This document shows positions 2,728-15,201 of a stretch of DNA of 64,000 nucleotides, piece after piece. A program made the position numbers and the translations under genes. This DNA is from a virus. Under the pieces are notes generated by a model that had not been told where the DNA came from, did not search any database, and worked only from the letters and a program-made list of their open reading frames with translations. Location: positions 1 through 64,000 of the IMG/VR virus record IMGVR_UViG_3300010396_000001, one strand, 5' to 3'. How positions within the stretch are numbered: the stretch's first letter is position 1; each line of letters opens with the position of its first letter.

Positions 2728-3150
2728 ATGGCCAGACTCCCCAGCGAGCTTTACGTGATCCAGCAGAACGACGGCATCGTCACCCTGTCCGAGGACGGCA
2801 GCCAGCGCGAGATCGCCCGGTTCGATCCGGCCGACGCCAATGCCACTGCCCGTGCCCAGAAGACCATTTACGACAGTGAGCTGTCCGACGAGGACAAGTG
2901 CTTCGCGCACTTCTGGTCCGGGTACTTCCACGCCCATGCCGGCGGCGAGCAGCCCTCCGCTGAGCCTTCGATCTCGGAGTCGCTCATGGCCGGGGCCATC
3001 ATCCATGCCCTGACTTCCGGCACCTGGGAGCAGGAGCAGACCCGGCTGCACGTCCGGGTTCCGATGAAGGCGTGTCCCGGATTCGAGGTCAGCTCGGACT
3101 CCTTTCCCGGCCAGCGGTTCCGCGTCGAGGTCCGCGAGGTGATGTCGTGA
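2728..3150 (+). CDS. Hypothetical protein, 140 aa
   Basis: Acidic soluble protein without recognised motifs; FAHFWSGYFHAHAGG near residue 60 is its most distinctive segment. Start from the TAGGCT box. Its TGA at 3148-3150 overlaps the GTG of the next gene (GTGA), so the two are probably translationally coupled. That makes it the closest operon partner of the ubiquitin-like protein that follows. Confidence 0.65.
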   Translation: MARLPSELYVIQQNDGIVTLSEDGSQREIARFDPADANATARAQKTIYDSELSDEDKCFAHFWSGYFHAHAGGEQPSAEPSISESLMAGAIIHALTSGTWEQEQTRLHVRVPMKACPGFEVSSDSFPGQRFRVEVREVMS

Positions 3151-11035: not shown

Positions 11036-11075
11036 AGAGGCCCCGGAGCTGATGCCCCGGGGCCTCTTCCTGTCT
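11036..11075 (+). terminator. Convergent terminator
   Basis: 11-bp stem AGAGGCCCCGG (11036-11046) with 11057-11067, followed by TCCTGTCT. It lies between convergent genes and may serve both. Confidence 0.7.
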
Positions 11076-11413
11076 CAGGACGGCTGGCCGACGCGCTCGC
11101 GCTGAGCCTCGGGCAGCGCATCGCGGGCCGCCTTGAACTCTTCCGCGCTCAGCCCGCGGCCCAGCTCGTTGATCAGGCGCAGCTGGAAGCGCTGCGTGGT
11201 CACCCTCCGGTTCAGGATGTCCAGGGCCGCCCGCTGGCGCGCGGTCTTGCCGACCAGGCGGGCCGCGCCCCACCGGGCGTGATCGCCGCCCGCGATGATC
11301 TCGCGCAGCGCCGCGATCTCGTCACGGGCCTCGGCCAGCTCGCGCCGGGCGTTCCTCAGGCTGGACTGCAGGTCGGCCTGGGCGGTCCGCTTCTCCTCAG
11401 CTGTCATGGTCAT
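11075..11413 (-). CDS. Coiled-coil hypothetical protein, 112 aa
   Basis: Minus strand. Starts MTMTAEEKR after GGAAGGAGC; a second in-frame ATG lies two codons in. Long heptad-like helix (LQSSLRNARRELAEARDEIAALREII) indicates a coiled coil. Overlaps the end of the upstream minus-strand gene by 17 bases. Function unknown. Confidence 0.65.
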   Translation of the reverse strand: MTMTAEEKRTAQADLQSSLRNARRELAEARDEIAALREIIAGGDHARWGAARLVGKTARQRAALDILNRRVTTQRFQLRLINELGRGLSAEEFKAARDALPEAQRERVGQPS

Positions 11414-11720
11414 GGCGTGCTCCTTCCGCTAGGGCGAGGGGGTACTTCGAGCACAGGCGGGCGGCCTGCGGCTCCAGGGCGACCGCAGTCAGCGCATCGC
11501 CGAGATCAGGCTCGTGAAAGGGGACCGCGATGAGCTGGCGGCGGCAGGCGTCCTCCAGCAGCCAGCACAGGGCCAGCTCATCAGGGACAGCCAGGAGCAC
11601 GAGGGTATTCGAGGAAGCGTGCCAGGCGGAGGTCAGCTCGGGATGAGCGACGGCCAGGTCCAGCGCGGCATGAGCGGCCTGGACAGCCTGGACGGCGAGC
11701 GGCAGGTCAGCCCGGGTCAC
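11397..11720 (-). CDS. Hypothetical protein, 107 aa
   Basis: GTG start at 11720. Ala/Leu-rich helical protein (VQAVQAAHAALDLAVAHPEL). Lies 33 bases downstream of a leaderless-type promoter that first encodes a 4-codon ORF (11753-11739). Translated with the coiled-coil gene. Confidence 0.6.
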   Translation of the reverse strand: MTRADLPLAVQAVQAAHAALDLAVAHPELTSAWHASSNTLVLLAVPDELALCWLLEDACRRQLIAVPFHEPDLGDALTAVALEPQAARLCSKYPLALAEGARHDHDS

Positions 11721-11738
11721 GAGATAGAGCCGTGAGCC

Positions 11739-11789
11739 CTAGTAATGCGTCATGGCGGCAAGCTAGCCCGGCTGCCCGCGGCATGTCAA
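11739..11789 (-). promoter_or_regulatory. Minus-strand promoter with leaderless 4-codon ORF
   Basis: Reading the minus strand: TTGACA (11789-11784), 18-bp spacer, TAGCTT (11765-11760), GCCGCC, then ATG at 11753. That ATG opens an ORF of only four codons (Met-Thr-His-Tyr) ending in TAG at 11741-11739, before the real gene at GTG 11720. The promoter lies immediately after the 3' end of the tRNA. Confidence 0.6.
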
Positions 11790-11795
11790 GCTGAG

Positions 11796-11868
11796 CGCCC
11801 CCGGCCGGAATCGAACCGGCGACCTGCAGATTTAGAGTCCGCTGCTCTGCCACCTGAGCTACGGGGGC
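11796..11868 (-). tRNA. tRNA with anticodon CTA (amber suppressor)
   Basis: 73-nt canonical cloverleaf on the minus strand. Acceptor GCCCCCG/CGGGGGC is 7 perfect pairs; T8-A9; D-stem GCTC/GAGC; anticodon stem GCGGA/TCTGC; loop CTCTAAA with anticodon CTA at 11835-11833; 5-nt variable loop; T-stem GCCGG/CCGGC with loop TTCGATT; discriminator G. CCA is not encoded. CTA reads UAG. The segment GGACTCTAAATC differs from the usual tRNA-Lys(CTT) loop by one base (T36 to A), so it may derive from tRNA-Lys; the charged amino acid is not known. Confidence 0.9.
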
Positions 11869-12420: not shown

Positions 12421-13011
12421 ATGACTGCCGTCGCTGAGTCGCTCCTGGACCGGGAGATCTCCAGTACCGCCCAGCAGCGGGCTGAGGGTGACCAGCGTAC
12501 CGACCGGCGCAGGCTGGGCGCCTTCCTGACGATCATCGCCCGGCACGCCGCGGATGCCGCGGACTTCGCCCTGCTGGCGGACGCAGTCATCCCCGAGCAG
12601 TTCCGGCAGTCGGCTGACGGCCTGGCCGCGCTGTACCAGCGCCTGCTCGATGCCGATCATGAGCCGGATCCGGGCGAGATCCTGGCGCAGGCCTGGGAGG
12701 AGCTGCTGCCCGGCCTGCAGCACAAGGAAGATCTCTTCCAGCGGGCCCGGATCACCCTGGCCAGTCTCGCTGCTGATCTCCGGGAGTGCTACCGCGAGGC
12801 GCTCGCCGCGGCGGCCACGGCCTATGTCGAGGCCGGGGGCCTGCTGTCTGCCAACACCCTGGTGCCGCTGACTCCCGAGCAGTTCCCTGAGCTGCCTGGC
12901 GCTGTCATCCAGCACCTGAAGTGGCGCCTGGAGGGCGAGGGCTACGAGCCGTCGGTGATCCCCTCGCGCAAGCGCTCCAAGGTCCGGATCTACCGGCTGC
13001 GCCAGGACTAG
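12421..13011 (+). CDS. Hypothetical protein, 196 aa
   Basis: Almost fully helical, acidic protein; a C-terminal basic tail (PSRKRSKVRIYRLRQD) could contact nucleic acid. Stops with TAG 13009, which starts a TAGGCT box in phase with GTG 13021. Confidence 0.6.
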   Translation: MTAVAESLLDREISSTAQQRAEGDQRTDRRRLGAFLTIIARHAADAADFALLADAVIPEQFRQSADGLAALYQRLLDADHEPDPGEILAQAWEELLPGLQHKEDLFQRARITLASLAADLRECYREALAAAATAYVEAGGLLSANTLVPLTPEQFPELPGAVIQHLKWRLEGEGYEPSVIPSRKRSKVRIYRLRQD

Positions 13012-13020
13012 GCTGCCACC
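13009..13020 (+). promoter_or_regulatory. TAGGCT promoter box overlapping a stop codon
   Basis: TAGGCT 13009-13014, GCCACC, GTG 13021. Upstream stop, box and downstream start are in phase. Confidence 0.55.
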
Positions 13021-13278
13021 GTGCCCGAGATAATCACCAGCTGCCCCTGCCGTCGGCCGCATGAGATGAGCCCCGCCACCTGGTCGGCCTTCCGGCGCGT
13101 GACCAGGGGACTGCCGGAGACCGTGGTCATCGAGGTGAATCGCAGGTCCTGGAAGGTGCCCCGGATCTATATCGCGCTGCACTCCGTGCACGGCGGCGAC
13201 CTGCCGGAGCTGGCCGGGCGCTACGGCTGGGAGGAGCTGGATCCCGGCGAGGCGCAGCCGGACGGCCTGTCCCTGTAG
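13021..13278 (+). CDS. Hypothetical protein, 85 aa
   Basis: GTG start directly after the TAGGCT box. N-terminal CPCRRPHEM suggests a metal site; then a small alpha/beta domain. Ends TAG 13276. Confidence 0.55.
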   Translation: MPEIITSCPCRRPHEMSPATWSAFRRVTRGLPETVVIEVNRRSWKVPRIYIALHSVHGGDLPELAGRYGWEELDPGEAQPDGLSL

Positions 13279-13291
13279 CTGCCATCTTCCT

Positions 13292-13345
13292 GGCAATGTT
13301 TATTGCAGCTTTGTTTGCATCCTGGCGGGAAACCTGACAGGATGA
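13292..13345 (+). promoter_or_regulatory. Leader of the collagen-like gene: AAT-TTTATTGCA box and hairpin
   Basis: A CAATGTTTATTGCA box is followed by TTTGCATCCTGGCGGG and a stem CATCCTG/CAGGATG. The same arrangement, nearly base for base, precedes the secreted protein gene at 14335. The genes themselves differ, so the leader appears to be a shared regulatory unit. Confidence 0.5.
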
Positions 13346-13398
13346 AAGCAACCGGCCAGCATCAGGCGGCCGGCAGCAGCTCCCGGAAGGGGCACGAA

Positions 13399-14160
13399 AT
13401 GATCAGGAAGATCTCCGCAGTCATCGCCGCGGTGGTTGCCACCGTCGGGATCGGCGGCGCCGCCCTGGCCAGCACGGCCAGCACGGCCACCTCGCCGACG
13501 GTCTTCAGCGGCTGTGTCAACACCAGGACCGGCCGCGTGCTCGACAACGTCTTCACCAGCCCCGCCAACTTCAGGCGCTGCCCGTCCGGCAGCTTCGAGG
13601 TGACCTGGAACCAGCGGGGGCTGAAGGGCGCCACCGGAGCGACCGGGGCCACGGGCCCGGCAGGCCCCGCCGGGGCGCCTGGCGCCACGGGTGCCAAGGG
13701 CGACACCGGCTCGCAGGGTCCCTCGGGCGTGGTCTCCACTGGCACTACCGACCTGGGCGGCGTTGCCTCGGTCCCGACCGGGGGCAGCTTCGTCACCAAT
13801 GCCACCGATGTCGGCGAGATCACGCTGGACGCGGGCACCTACCTGCTGAACGTGGACGCCAAGGCTACCCCGCCCTCTGGCGGCACCGGCGCTGTCGAGG
13901 AGTTCCCGCAGTTCTTCGTCTACAACGGTACGCCACTCGCCGACTTCTCCAACGACCTGTTCAACGTCGGCTCCGGCGCGCTGGAAAATGGCGCCAACGC
14001 CAACATCGACAGCTACTTCAGCGGCTCGGGCGAGATCACGCTGAACAGCTTGACCACGCTGCACTTCTACGCCTTCGGCTACAACAGCGACCGGAGCGCG
14101 GGCAGCTACGTCCTGGACGACCTGTCGGTCACGGCCACCCGGCTCAACCCGGCCAGCTAG
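13399..14160 (+). CDS. Secreted collagen-like protein
   Basis: 253 residues. Signal peptide (basic start, hydrophobic 6-27, ALAS). Residues about 75-112 are twelve Gly-X-Y triplets (GATGATGATGPAGPAGAPG onward), the collagen triple-helix repeat, followed by a beta-rich C-terminal domain of about 135 residues similar in look to trimeric C1q/TNF-like heads. Probable trimer exported to the cell surface or added to the virion. ATG 13399 follows GGAAGGGG. Signal peptide is unusual for a virion protein, so a role at the infected-cell surface is favoured. Confidence 0.75.
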   Translation: MIRKISAVIAAVVATVGIGGAALASTASTATSPTVFSGCVNTRTGRVLDNVFTSPANFRRCPSGSFEVTWNQRGLKGATGATGATGPAGPAGAPGATGAKGDTGSQGPSGVVSTGTTDLGGVASVPTGGSFVTNATDVGEITLDAGTYLLNVDAKATPPSGGTGAVEEFPQFFVYNGTPLADFSNDLFNVGSGALENGANANIDSYFSGSGEITLNSLTTLHFYAFGYNSDRSAGSYVLDDLSVTATRLNPAS

Positions 14161-14167
14161 CCACCAC

Positions 14168-14222
14168 GAGACAATCTTTATTGCATTCGGCTTGCATCCT
14201 GGCGGGGAACCTGCCAGGATGC
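14168..14222 (+). promoter_or_regulatory. Second copy of the secreted-protein leader
   Basis: ACAATCTTTATTGCATT, then CTTGCATCCTGGCGGGG and a 9-bp stem CATCCTGGC/GCCAGGATG. Matches the leader at 13292-13345. ATG 14335 lies 110 bases further on. Confidence 0.5.
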
Positions 14223-14334
14223 TGCCTGCACCGCGGAGCAGAGAATGCACCCGGCAGCCACGGAGGGGGTAAGCACCAGCGCGCCAGGGGCGCGCATGAT
14301 CCGCCACATGAACTCTTTCTCGGAGGAAATGCAC

Positions 14335-15201
14335 ATGCGCAAGGCAATCTTCACGCGGCTCGCGGCCCCCGTGGCCGCCGTCGTCGCCGTGCTGGGCTTC
14401 GGGCTGGCCTCGGCCAGCGCCGCGGGCGCGGCCACCGTCGCCGTCCCGAACGCCGTCAGCCACGACACTGCTGGCCTGGCCGGCCAGTACAAGAACAACG
14501 TGGCCAGCGGATGGCGCTACCGCGACGTCAAGACGACCTTCACGGTTACCGCCAACATGGAGCAGCTCGGTAACACGGGCTCCGGGCCGACCGCTGAGTT
14601 CGGTGGCGCGGGCGTCCGACTGTGCGACGCGAACAGCGACAACGGCCAGGGCTTCGGCCTGGATAACGGCGTCATCTGGAATGCCCCTCTGAGCGAGTTC
14701 CAGGCCGCGGTGGGCTTCGGCGATGGCGTGGACGCTACCAGCACCGACCCCGACCCGTGCGTGAGCACGGGTGCGTTCTCAGCCCCGCATGTTTACCCTG
14801 GCAGCGTCAACGCGGCCGGTGTTTCCATCGGGGACAGCATCACCGTGGAGACCTACTACAACCCGAAGACCCACTGGGTGACCTTCACCGTGACCGACAA
14901 CACCACGGGCTTCACCTCCAACCTGCACTGCTTCGCCGGCTACCAGAACTTCTACGAGGCGGGCGTCGGCGTGCTGGATCTGAACGCGAACGCCCTGGTA
15001 GGACCGGCGATCAACCCGATCACGGCCTTCACCGGCTCGCGGGCGACCAACTACGGCGCGAAGTCCGCCGCGACCTCCCTGCTGTCCGACGGCCCGGCTC
15101 CGGGCGCGGTCACGGCCCTGAACGGCTCCAACGTCCCGGTGGTCGTGCCCGGTCCCCTGACCGGCGGATCCGCGTTCTCGATCACGGCCGGCATCAGCTA
15201 A
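14335..15201 (+). CDS. Secreted beta-rich protein, 288 aa
   Basis: ATG 14335 lies 8 bases after GGAGG (an ATG at 14329 is too close). Signal peptide of about 32 residues ending SASAAGA. The mature region is beta-rich with WRYRDVKTTFTVT and GDSITVETYYNPKTHWVTFTVTD, which recalls the jelly-roll sandwich of eqolisin-type (G1) peptidases and related lectin folds; the catalytic Gln/Glu pair could not be confirmed. Two Cys pairs likely. Shares its leader with the collagen-like gene, so both are probably expressed together and exported. Confidence 0.65.
   Translation: MRKAIFTRLAAPVAAVVAVLGFGLASASAAGAATVAVPNAVSHDTAGLAGQYKNNVASGWRYRDVKTTFTVTANMEQLGNTGSGPTAEFGGAGVRLCDANSDNGQGFGLDNGVIWNAPLSEFQAAVGFGDGVDATSTDPDPCVSTGAFSAPHVYPGSVNAAGVSIGDSITVETYYNPKTHWVTFTVTDNTTGFTSNLHCFAGYQNFYEAGVGVLDLNANALVGPAINPITAFTGSRATNYGAKSAATSLLSDGPAPGAVTALNGSNVPVVVPGPLTGGSAFSITAGIS

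What the first reader, a model, noticed from the sequence alone, without database searches (positions are those of the whole stretch)
11796..11868. Canonical tRNA with CTA anticodon: a phage amber suppressor in a TAG-rich genome
All cloverleaf stems pair perfectly and the 7-base anticodon loop CTCTAAA places CTA at 34-36, which reads UAG. Its anticodon arm looks one base away from tRNA-Lys(CTT). Yet TAG is a frequent stop in this window (for example at 433, 2393, 2716, 4037, 10968, 13009, 46572, 56329), so wholesale TAG recoding is not in force. Partial suppression of chosen stops, or action after a host response, are possible explanations.
Basis: partly seen in the sequence, partly recalled or inferred. 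Interest (0 to 1): 0.85.

Follow-up and report, generated by a model that had tools for sequence, protein, structure and literature searches.

The report
Stop-codon-gated gene with own suppressor tRNA
The phage carries a tRNA that can read the stop codon UAG, and right beside it lies a small gene whose reading frame is cut by a UAG at codon 5; the same pairing recurs in many unrelated phages and in some actinobacterial chromosomes, which suggests a stop-codon-gated gene switch that has not been described before.

Summary
The tRNA is real (minus strand, 11868-11796; Rfam 66 bits; anticodon CTA). The 160.7-kb phage record is not recoded: TAG ends 47 of 190 called genes. A PTH2-fold (peptidyl-tRNA-hydrolase-like) gene, ATG at 11753, has an in-frame TAG at codon 5 and no start codon between that TAG and the middle of its first beta strand.

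The same arrangement recurs in about 18 unrelated phage lineages (Mycobacterium phages I3 and Myrna; jumbo phages GAP32, BF, XacN1, ME3, Arash, RAS14; 595-735-kb phages) and at 13 of 13 intact actinobacterial chromosomal loci. TAG sits at codon 2-5, is followed by a purine in 30 of 32 cases, and a CTA tRNA is usually adjacent. The PTH2 genes are under purifying selection; housekeeping PTH2 paralogues lack both features.

In the bacteria and this phage a second small helical gene completes a compact ~1-kb module, which sits at unrelated chromosomal sites. Best reading: the linked tRNA must suppress the early UAG for the PTH2-like protein to be made. That is strongly supported comparatively but untested experimentally. 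The inserted amino acid and the purpose are unknown.

The parts
11796..11868 (-). tRNA with anticodon CTA (anticodon at 11833-11835), predicted to read UAG; no CCA encoded
   Evidence: ARAGORN, Rfam RF00005 66 bits, fold
11784..11789 (-). -35-like TTGACA, 18 nt before the -10-like hexamer
   Evidence: sequence; same spacing as in Bixzunavirus I3. The generic promoter scan did not score it
11760..11765 (-). -10-like TAGCTT ending 6 nt before the ATG, so the mRNA is probably leaderless and starts at or next to AUG
   Evidence: TANNNT 6-7 nt before the start in 13/13 bacterial loci and in most actinophage loci
11397..11753 (-). PTH2-fold gene read from ATG 11753 through the in-frame TAG (MTHY*GSRLYLVTRADL...), 118 aa
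   Evidence: Pfam PTH2 25.6 bits (cutoff 23) through the TAG against 21.5 from the next start GTG 11720; AlphaFold pLDDT 93 with first strand at residues 8-14; Foldseek: PTH2 structures
11739..11741 (-). in-frame TAG at codon 5, followed by G; the gate
11075..11413 (-). second gene, 112 aa, overlapping the end of the PTH2 gene; two long helices, probably coiled coil
   Evidence: homologous to the second gene of bacterial modules, 24 invariant columns; AlphaFold pLDDT 82

Best explanation
The CTA tRNA is the dedicated decoder of an amber-gated gene. Transcription from the TTGACA-N18-TAGCTT promoter gives a leaderless mRNA whose first codons are AUG-ACG-CAU-UAC-UAG. Without the tRNA, ribosomes stop or drop off after four codons and no PTH2-fold protein is made. 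With the charged tRNA-CUA present, UAG is read as an amino acid in a context that favours suppression, and the PTH2-fold protein (and, by overlap, the second gene) is produced. Shown here: the tRNA, the frame through TAG, the absence of an alternative start that keeps the first strand, the recurrence of the arrangement in unrelated phages and in bacterial chromosomes, purifying selection, and linkage to CTA tRNAs. Inferred: that suppression happens in cells. Inferred more weakly: the purpose. My preferred purpose is that the PTH2-fold protein deals with the by-products of suppression (peptidyl-tRNAs and stalled ribosomes after readthrough of ordinary UAG stops), so the gate makes the antidote only when, and in proportion as, suppression is happening. 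The confidence given is for the suppression-dependence, not for the purpose (about 0.35).
For: (1) PTH2 similarity continues up to the TAG: Pfam 25.6 against 21.5 bits and PHROG 47.4 against 41.5 bits for the frame through TAG against a start at GTG; the predicted first strand is residues 8-14, immediately after the TAG. (2) Bixzunavirus I3, Cane17 and ten others: TTGACA-N18-TAC(T/C)GT-N6-ATG TAG GTG, CTA tRNA about 300 nt downstream. (3) 35 homologues from IMG/VR, found by protein alone: about half have TAG at codon 2-5, most of these with a CTA tRNA, several without any start after the TAG. (4) All 13 intact actinobacterial loci have TAG at codon 5, a -10-like hexamer 6-7 nt before the start, and a CTA tRNA (one of them cut by the contig end); canonical PTH2 paralogues have none of this. 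(5) Phage lineages: gated/ungated against CTA tRNA in locus 16,1/3,15, Fisher p 4e-6. (6) Prediction test: BF, GAP32, RAS14, LR756511 and XacN1, whose gates were seen first, all have a CTA tRNA elsewhere in the genome. (7) dN/dS about 0.10-0.39. (8) Base after the gate TAG is G or A in 30/32 against 22/43 for ordinary TAG stops, p 9e-5. (9) Bacterial CTA tRNAs show compensatory changes in 7 pairs with the anticodon invariant. (10) In Bixzunaviruses the CTA tRNA exists with two unrelated bodies at the same place.
Against: No RNA, protein or charging data. In Bixzunavirus, Myrna, L158, L171 and L197 a GTG or ATG directly follows the TAG, so a conventional start is possible there, although it lies 12-13 nt from the -10-like hexamer. 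L144/L145 are gated but no CTA tRNA was found (contigs may be incomplete). L138, L140 and L168 have a CTA tRNA near an ungated homologue, and L137, L141, L148 and Lak-B7 have a TTA tRNA. The catalytic lysine segment of classical PTH2 (GKGK) is not conserved in this subfamily, so hydrolase activity is unproven. The statistics are not phylogenetically corrected.
Confidence: 0.85

Rival explanations
1. The gated frame is real, but the circuit is a sensor of translation termination rather than a control on suppression. UAG readthrough rises when release factor 1 is scarce or termination is disturbed (for example during infection or host shut-off), and the PTH2-fold protein is then made as a stress or defence effector.
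For: The module stands alone on bacterial chromosomes at unrelated sites with ordinary flanking genes and is sporadic (9 of 151 genomes in one family; in the class sample of 395 only the centre genome had a strong match), as expected of a mobile defence or stress unit. The gate lies at codon 2-5 followed by a purine.
Against: No defence-gene neighbourhood was seen in the flanks read; many carriers are phages, which would more likely carry counter-defence.
Confidence: 0.3
2. The in-frame TAG is incidental and the protein starts at a codon after the TAG (GTG 11720 in the window), so the CTA tRNA has some other target or none.
For: Annotators use the GTG after the TAG in Bixzunavirus and Myrna; Arash gp84 is annotated from an internal start.
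Against: In the window the GTG start would delete residues 8-11 of the first strand; in 12 of 13 bacterial loci and in more than 10 phage lineages no ATG/GTG/TTG exists between the TAG and the core; in Serratia phage BF the gene is not annotated at all; recurrence of TAG at codon 2-5 together with a CTA tRNA this often is very unlikely by chance.
Confidence: 0.07
3. The tRNA serves wholesale or broad TAG recoding of the phage genome, and PTH2 is one of many targets.
For: CTA tRNAs do this in code-15 phages (PMC9523058, PMC13037316).
Against: TAG ends 47 of 190 genes; the scan for other gated frames in the genome gave no other convincing case; the MCP stop interchanges TAG, TGA and TAA in relatives.
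Confidence: 0.05
4. The gene is a pseudogene with a nonsense mutation and the tRNA is a chance neighbour.
For: A single genome viewed alone would look like this.
Against: Same TAG position in 13/13 bacterial loci, purifying selection, and recurrence across phages.
Confidence: 0.02

Closest known systems
Phages with stop-codon reassignment (genetic code 15; crAss-like, Lak and other jumbo phages with suppressor tRNA)
   Same: Phage-encoded tRNA with CTA anticodon reading UAG in a host that uses UAG as stop.
   Different: Here the code is not changed: TAG ends a quarter of the genes and the only convincing target is one gene beside the tRNA.
Pyrrolysine system (pylT with UAG-containing methyltransferase genes)
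   Same: A dedicated UAG-reading tRNA and a specific gene with an in-frame UAG, in an organism where UAG is otherwise a stop (general knowledge).
   Different: The tRNA is an ordinary RF00005 cloverleaf with variable bodies; the UAG is always in the first five codons, outside the fold, so it works as a gate and not as an active-site residue.
prfB (release factor 2) autogenous control by an early in-frame UGA
   Same: Expression of a translation-related protein depends on what happens at an early in-frame stop codon (general knowledge).
   Different: prfB uses a +1 frameshift and its own product as sensor; here a separate tRNA gene supplies the decoding.
PTH2 peptidyl-tRNA hydrolase family (Pfam PF01981; 2zv3, 1q7s, 3erj)
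   Same: Fold and overall sequence profile.
   Different: The GKGK loop with the catalytic lysine is shortened and lacks lysine; the subfamily carries a conserved EPD(L)G motif; activity unknown.
Orphan suppressor tRNAs of XacN1 (PMC5852040) and phage Summit (PMC9022506)
   Same: Suppressor tRNAs reported in phages not known to be recoded, with no target found.
   Different: For XacN1 a target can now be named: ORF364, whose frame begins ATG-AAG-TAG in front of an HD-like plus PTH2 protein. Summit was not checked.

Membership tests
tRNA (Rfam RF00005) | full-length cloverleaf above gathering score | tested here: met
   66.0 bits, cutoff 29
Functional amber suppressor | aminoacylated and decodes UAG in cells | not testable with these tools
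   only sequence available; the discriminator is G and body similarity is split between Arg and Lys
PTH2 family (PF01981) | sequence profile above curated cutoff and PTH2 fold | tested here: met
   25.6 bits against cutoff 23 when read through the TAG; Foldseek E 2e-6, TM about 0.7
PTH2 family (PF01981) | catalytic lysine in the GKGK segment | tested here: not met
   in the alignment to 2zv3 the lysine position is not lysine in the subfamily and two residues are missing
Code-15 (TAG-recoded) phage | TAG rare as a stop and frequent inside genes genome-wide | tested here: not met
   47 of 190 genes end in TAG; one convincing in-frame case
Pyrrolysine system | PylRS and Pyl biosynthesis genes, atypical tRNA-Pyl | not tested
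   the ARAGORN label tRNA-Pyl reflects the anticodon only; pyl genes were not searched; the tRNA is a standard cloverleaf
Amber-gated PTH2 module (proposed here) | start codon, 0-3 sense codons, TAG, PTH2-fold core with no usable start after TAG | tested here: met
Amber-gated PTH2 module (proposed here) | CTA tRNA in or near the locus | tested here: met
   42 nt lie between the tRNA 3' end (11796) and the ATG (11753)
Amber-gated PTH2 module, actinobacterial three-part form | second small helical gene overlapping the PTH2 gene | tested here: met
   A4 alignment, 24 invariant columns; also in phage loci L157 and L170

The most novel reading that the evidence does not exclude
A previously undescribed mobile genetic unit of about 1 kb, shared by unrelated phages and actinobacterial chromosomes, in which a suppressor tRNA and an amber-gated PTH2-fold protein (plus a small partner) form a self-regulating pair. 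It could act as an addiction or defence/counter-defence module: the tRNA perturbs termination and the gated protein is its built-in, suppression-dependent antidote or effector.
Probability: 0.35. Interest if true: 0.95.

Novelty: categorically new. Interest (0 to 1): 0.9.

Why it matters
Suppressor tRNAs in phages that are not recoded have been reported with no target found (XacN1, Summit). This work names a target that can be predicted from sequence, and the prediction held in five genomes checked afterwards. It would be a case of a gene switched on by its own dedicated stop-codon-reading tRNA without any change of the genetic code, and it occurs in cultured phages of Mycobacterium smegmatis (I3, LinStu and other Bixzunaviruses, Myrna), where it can be tested directly. 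It also shows that gene callers miss or truncate such genes (unannotated in Serratia phage BF) and that CTA tRNAs are mislabelled as Phe, Leu, Ser or Arg in public records.

Tried and rejected
Wholesale recoding: rejected by stop usage. Other TAG-gated or TAG-fused genes in the phage: 13 junctions where both sides of a TAG look coding, including four genes in one frame at 12421-15201; these look like neighbouring genes with their own starts, and the dedicated scan for gated starts gave only the PTH2 frame as convincing. Conservation in close relatives: 31 records sharing the major head protein carry neither the gene nor a CTA tRNA of the searched pattern, so the module is an accessory acquisition in this phage and comparison had to go through the PTH2 protein instead. 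Plasmids: no homologue. A first PTH2 scan found only remote homologues; the alignment-based scan was needed. Amino-acid identity by tRNA similarity: inconclusive. Fold and PDB searches gave PTH2 only. Literature searches found no description of the pairing; most subscription journals and preprints were not searchable.

Full report
What is there. The window is the first 64 kb of a 160,709-base virus record, a phage whose head protein gene matches that of Rhodococcus phage Finch at 77% DNA identity over 281 bases. ARAGORN and Rfam agree on a tRNA at 11868-11796 on the minus strand with anticodon CTA; its fold is a clean cloverleaf. A codon-model gene call over the whole record gives 191 genes, with stops TGA 125, TAG 47 and TAA 18, so TAG is an ordinary stop. 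The tRNA heads a short minus-strand island inside a plus-strand gene region: tRNA (11868-11796), then a small gene whose standard ORF call begins at GTG 11720, then a 112-aa gene 11413-11075.

The target. Upstream of GTG 11720 the frame of the small gene stays coding-like up to a TAG at 11739-11741, and beyond it to an ATG at 11753: ATG-ACG-CAT-TAC-TAG-GGC-TCA-CGG-CTC-TAT-CTC-GTG. Read through the TAG the protein is MTHY*GSRLYLVTRADL..., which passes the Pfam PTH2 cutoff (25.6 bits; 21.5 when started at GTG) and scores 47.4 against 41.5 bits for PHROG 1866. AlphaFold gives a confident PTH2 fold (pLDDT 93.1) with the first strand at residues 8-14, directly after the TAG; Foldseek's best matches are PTH2 structures. 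A start at GTG (codon 12) would remove four of the seven residues of that strand. A TTGACA-N18-TAGCTT element ends 6 nt before the ATG, the layout of a leaderless actinobacterial mRNA; the generic promoter scan did not report it, so this is an observation by eye backed by its recurrence below.

Recurrence in cultured mycobacteriophages. tblastn found annotated peptidyl-tRNA hydrolases of Bixzunavirus. In I3 the gene is followed by an annotated tRNA-Pyl(cta), and the sequence before the annotated GTG start reads TTGACA-N18-TACTGT-GAAGGC-ATG-TAG-GTG. All 12 Bixzunavirus loci read keep ATGTAG GTG and a CTA tRNA, labelled variously OTHER, Sup, Leu or Pyl; two unrelated tRNA bodies occupy the same place in different phages, both with anticodon CTA. 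Megablast finds the gene in 190 records. Myrna and Phabba have GTG-TAG-GTG and a CTA tRNA about 130-150 nt downstream.

Recurrence in metagenomic and jumbo phages. A scan of IMG/VR with a four-sequence PTH2 alignment, blind to TAG and to tRNAs, gave 35 loci. Reading upstream of the conserved core shows start-(0-3 codons)-TAG in L143, L144/145, L155, L157-L161, L164-L167 and L169-L171; in most of these no ATG, GTG or TTG lies between the TAG and the core. CTA tRNAs lie downstream in most, including a D-armless one in L159 and one with an unusual T-loop in L160 that ARAGORN missed. L144/145 is the exception. Counting one row per phage lineage, gated/ungated against CTA tRNA in the locus is 16,1/3,15, p 4e-6, without phylogenetic correction. 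Jumbo phages repeat it, several with Shine-Dalgarno sequences instead of leaderless starts: ME3 ATG-ACT-TAG, XacN1 ATG-AAG-TAG, RAS14 ATG-AAG-TAG, GAP32 ATG-GCA-CAA-TAG, BF ATG-ACG-CAC-TAG, Arash ATG-CTG-TAG, LR756503 ATG-TCG-TAG, LR756511 ATG-ACT-CAC-TAG. For BF, GAP32, RAS14, LR756511 and XacN1 the gate was seen first and a CTA tRNA was then found in each genome; RaK2, ungated, showed none by the same pattern. For XacN1 the authors had reported two CUA tRNAs per terminal repeat and no target (PMC5852040).

Recurrence in bacteria. A scan of GTDB genomes found ten loci in Virgisporangium, Nocardia, Actinomadura, Dactylosporangium, Asanoa and a Streptosporangiaceae MAG, 53-70% identical to the query. 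The nine intact ones, and four more from a family-level search, all have ATG or GTG, three codons, TAG, with a -10-like hexamer 6-7 nt before the start and a CTA tRNA some 300-400 nt after the PTH2 gene; in L187 the contig ends inside the tRNA. The canonical PTH2 paralogues in related genomes (GKGKIAAQAAHAA type) have ordinary starts and no CTA tRNA. Between the PTH2 gene and the tRNA lies a gene homologous to the window's 11413-11075 gene; phage loci L157 and L170 have it too. Apart from two Dactylosporangium species, the eight loci compared share no homologous gene at the site over 16 kb (two generic two-component genes aside), so the unit moves as a compact piece. It is rare: among 395 Actinomycetes sampled only the centre genome had a strong match, and nine of 151 genomes of the Dactylosporangium family did.

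Selection. dN/dS (Nei-Gojobori) for PTH2 after the TAG is about 0.13 (Nocardia pair), 0.25 (Virgisporangium), 0.39 (Dactylosporangium), 0.28 (Nocardia-Actinomadura), 0.19-0.22 (Bixzunavirus) and 0.10 (Myrna-Phabba). The bacterial CTA tRNAs keep 99% of pairs with double compensatory changes in seven pairs, more than any of 500 shuffles, and an invariant CTCTAAA loop. The base after the gate TAG is G 22, A 8, C 2, T 0, against T 6, C 15, G 20, A 2 after ordinary TAG stops of this phage (p 9e-5); from general knowledge of amber suppression, a purine in this position favours suppression over termination.

How it most likely works. The gated frame and the linked tRNA together imply that the PTH2-fold protein is made only when UAG is suppressed. 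Confidence in this dependence is about 0.85. Why a cell or phage would want it is inferred. The first option is that suppression of ordinary UAG stops sends ribosomes into 3' regions and generates peptidyl-tRNA and stalled ribosomes, and the gated protein deals with them; tmRNA genes near the module in Bixzunavirus, L160, L166 and beside the XacN1 CTA tRNAs fit a ribosome-rescue theme. The second is a sensor of failing termination. The subfamily lacks the lysine of the GKGK segment, so its chemistry must be tested, not assumed.

Novelty. The parts are known (phage suppressor tRNAs, PTH2 fold, stop-codon recoding by dedicated tRNAs as in pyrrolysine). The combination, an early amber gate on one gene plus its own tRNA as a recurrent and mobile module in genomes that keep the standard code, was not found in any paper searched, which is why it is rated as categorically new rather than as a member of those kinds.

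Limits. No expression, charging or peptide data. The inserted amino acid is unknown; by sequence the window tRNA is closest to Arg(TCT) and Lys tRNAs of Nocardia. Lineage counts are manual and not corrected for phylogeny. Literature coverage is open-access only.

Noticed in passing
window 12421-15201 (+): Four successive genes lie in one reading frame separated by TAG, TAG, TAG and ended by TAA; probably chance.
   Followed up: partly
G000 record 99033-99457 (-), locus L011: Four weak tandem tRNA-like matches (Rfam 13-21 bits), one called tRNA-Ile(GAT) by ARAGORN; possibly degenerate or unusual tRNAs.
   Followed up: no
L137, L141, L148 (= LR745208) and L180 (Lak-B7): PTH2-fold genes without an obvious gate lie near a tRNA with anticodon TTA (reads UAA), suggesting that suppressor-PTH2 linkage extends beyond amber.
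   Followed up: partly
L147 about 2970-3010: A PTH2-fold frame has start codons only before an in-frame TGA; 38 tRNA matches in the contig but no UGA suppressor was seen among those read.
   Followed up: partly
L124:13399-13833, L160:1548-1902, L166:4957-5335, L290 (XacN1): tmRNA genes occur near the gated PTH2 gene or beside the CTA tRNAs in several unrelated phages.
   Followed up: no
L177 (XacN1 ORF364), L284 (RAS14): The gated protein is an N-terminal HD-like domain fused to the PTH2-fold domain.
   Followed up: no
L178 (LR756503) about 3001-3130: A second in-frame TAG lies inside the PTH2 frame of this 735-kb phage, which has two CTA tRNAs; it may be recoded.
   Followed up: no
L283:3810-3884 (Arash), L135:3233-3305 (Sprinklers), L175:3466-3537 (Myrna), L176:3465-3535 (Phabba): CTA tRNAs annotated in public records as Phe, Leu, Ser and Arg.
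   Followed up: yes
L190 (Asanoa): A second, decayed copy of the module on another contig of the same genome.
   Followed up: no
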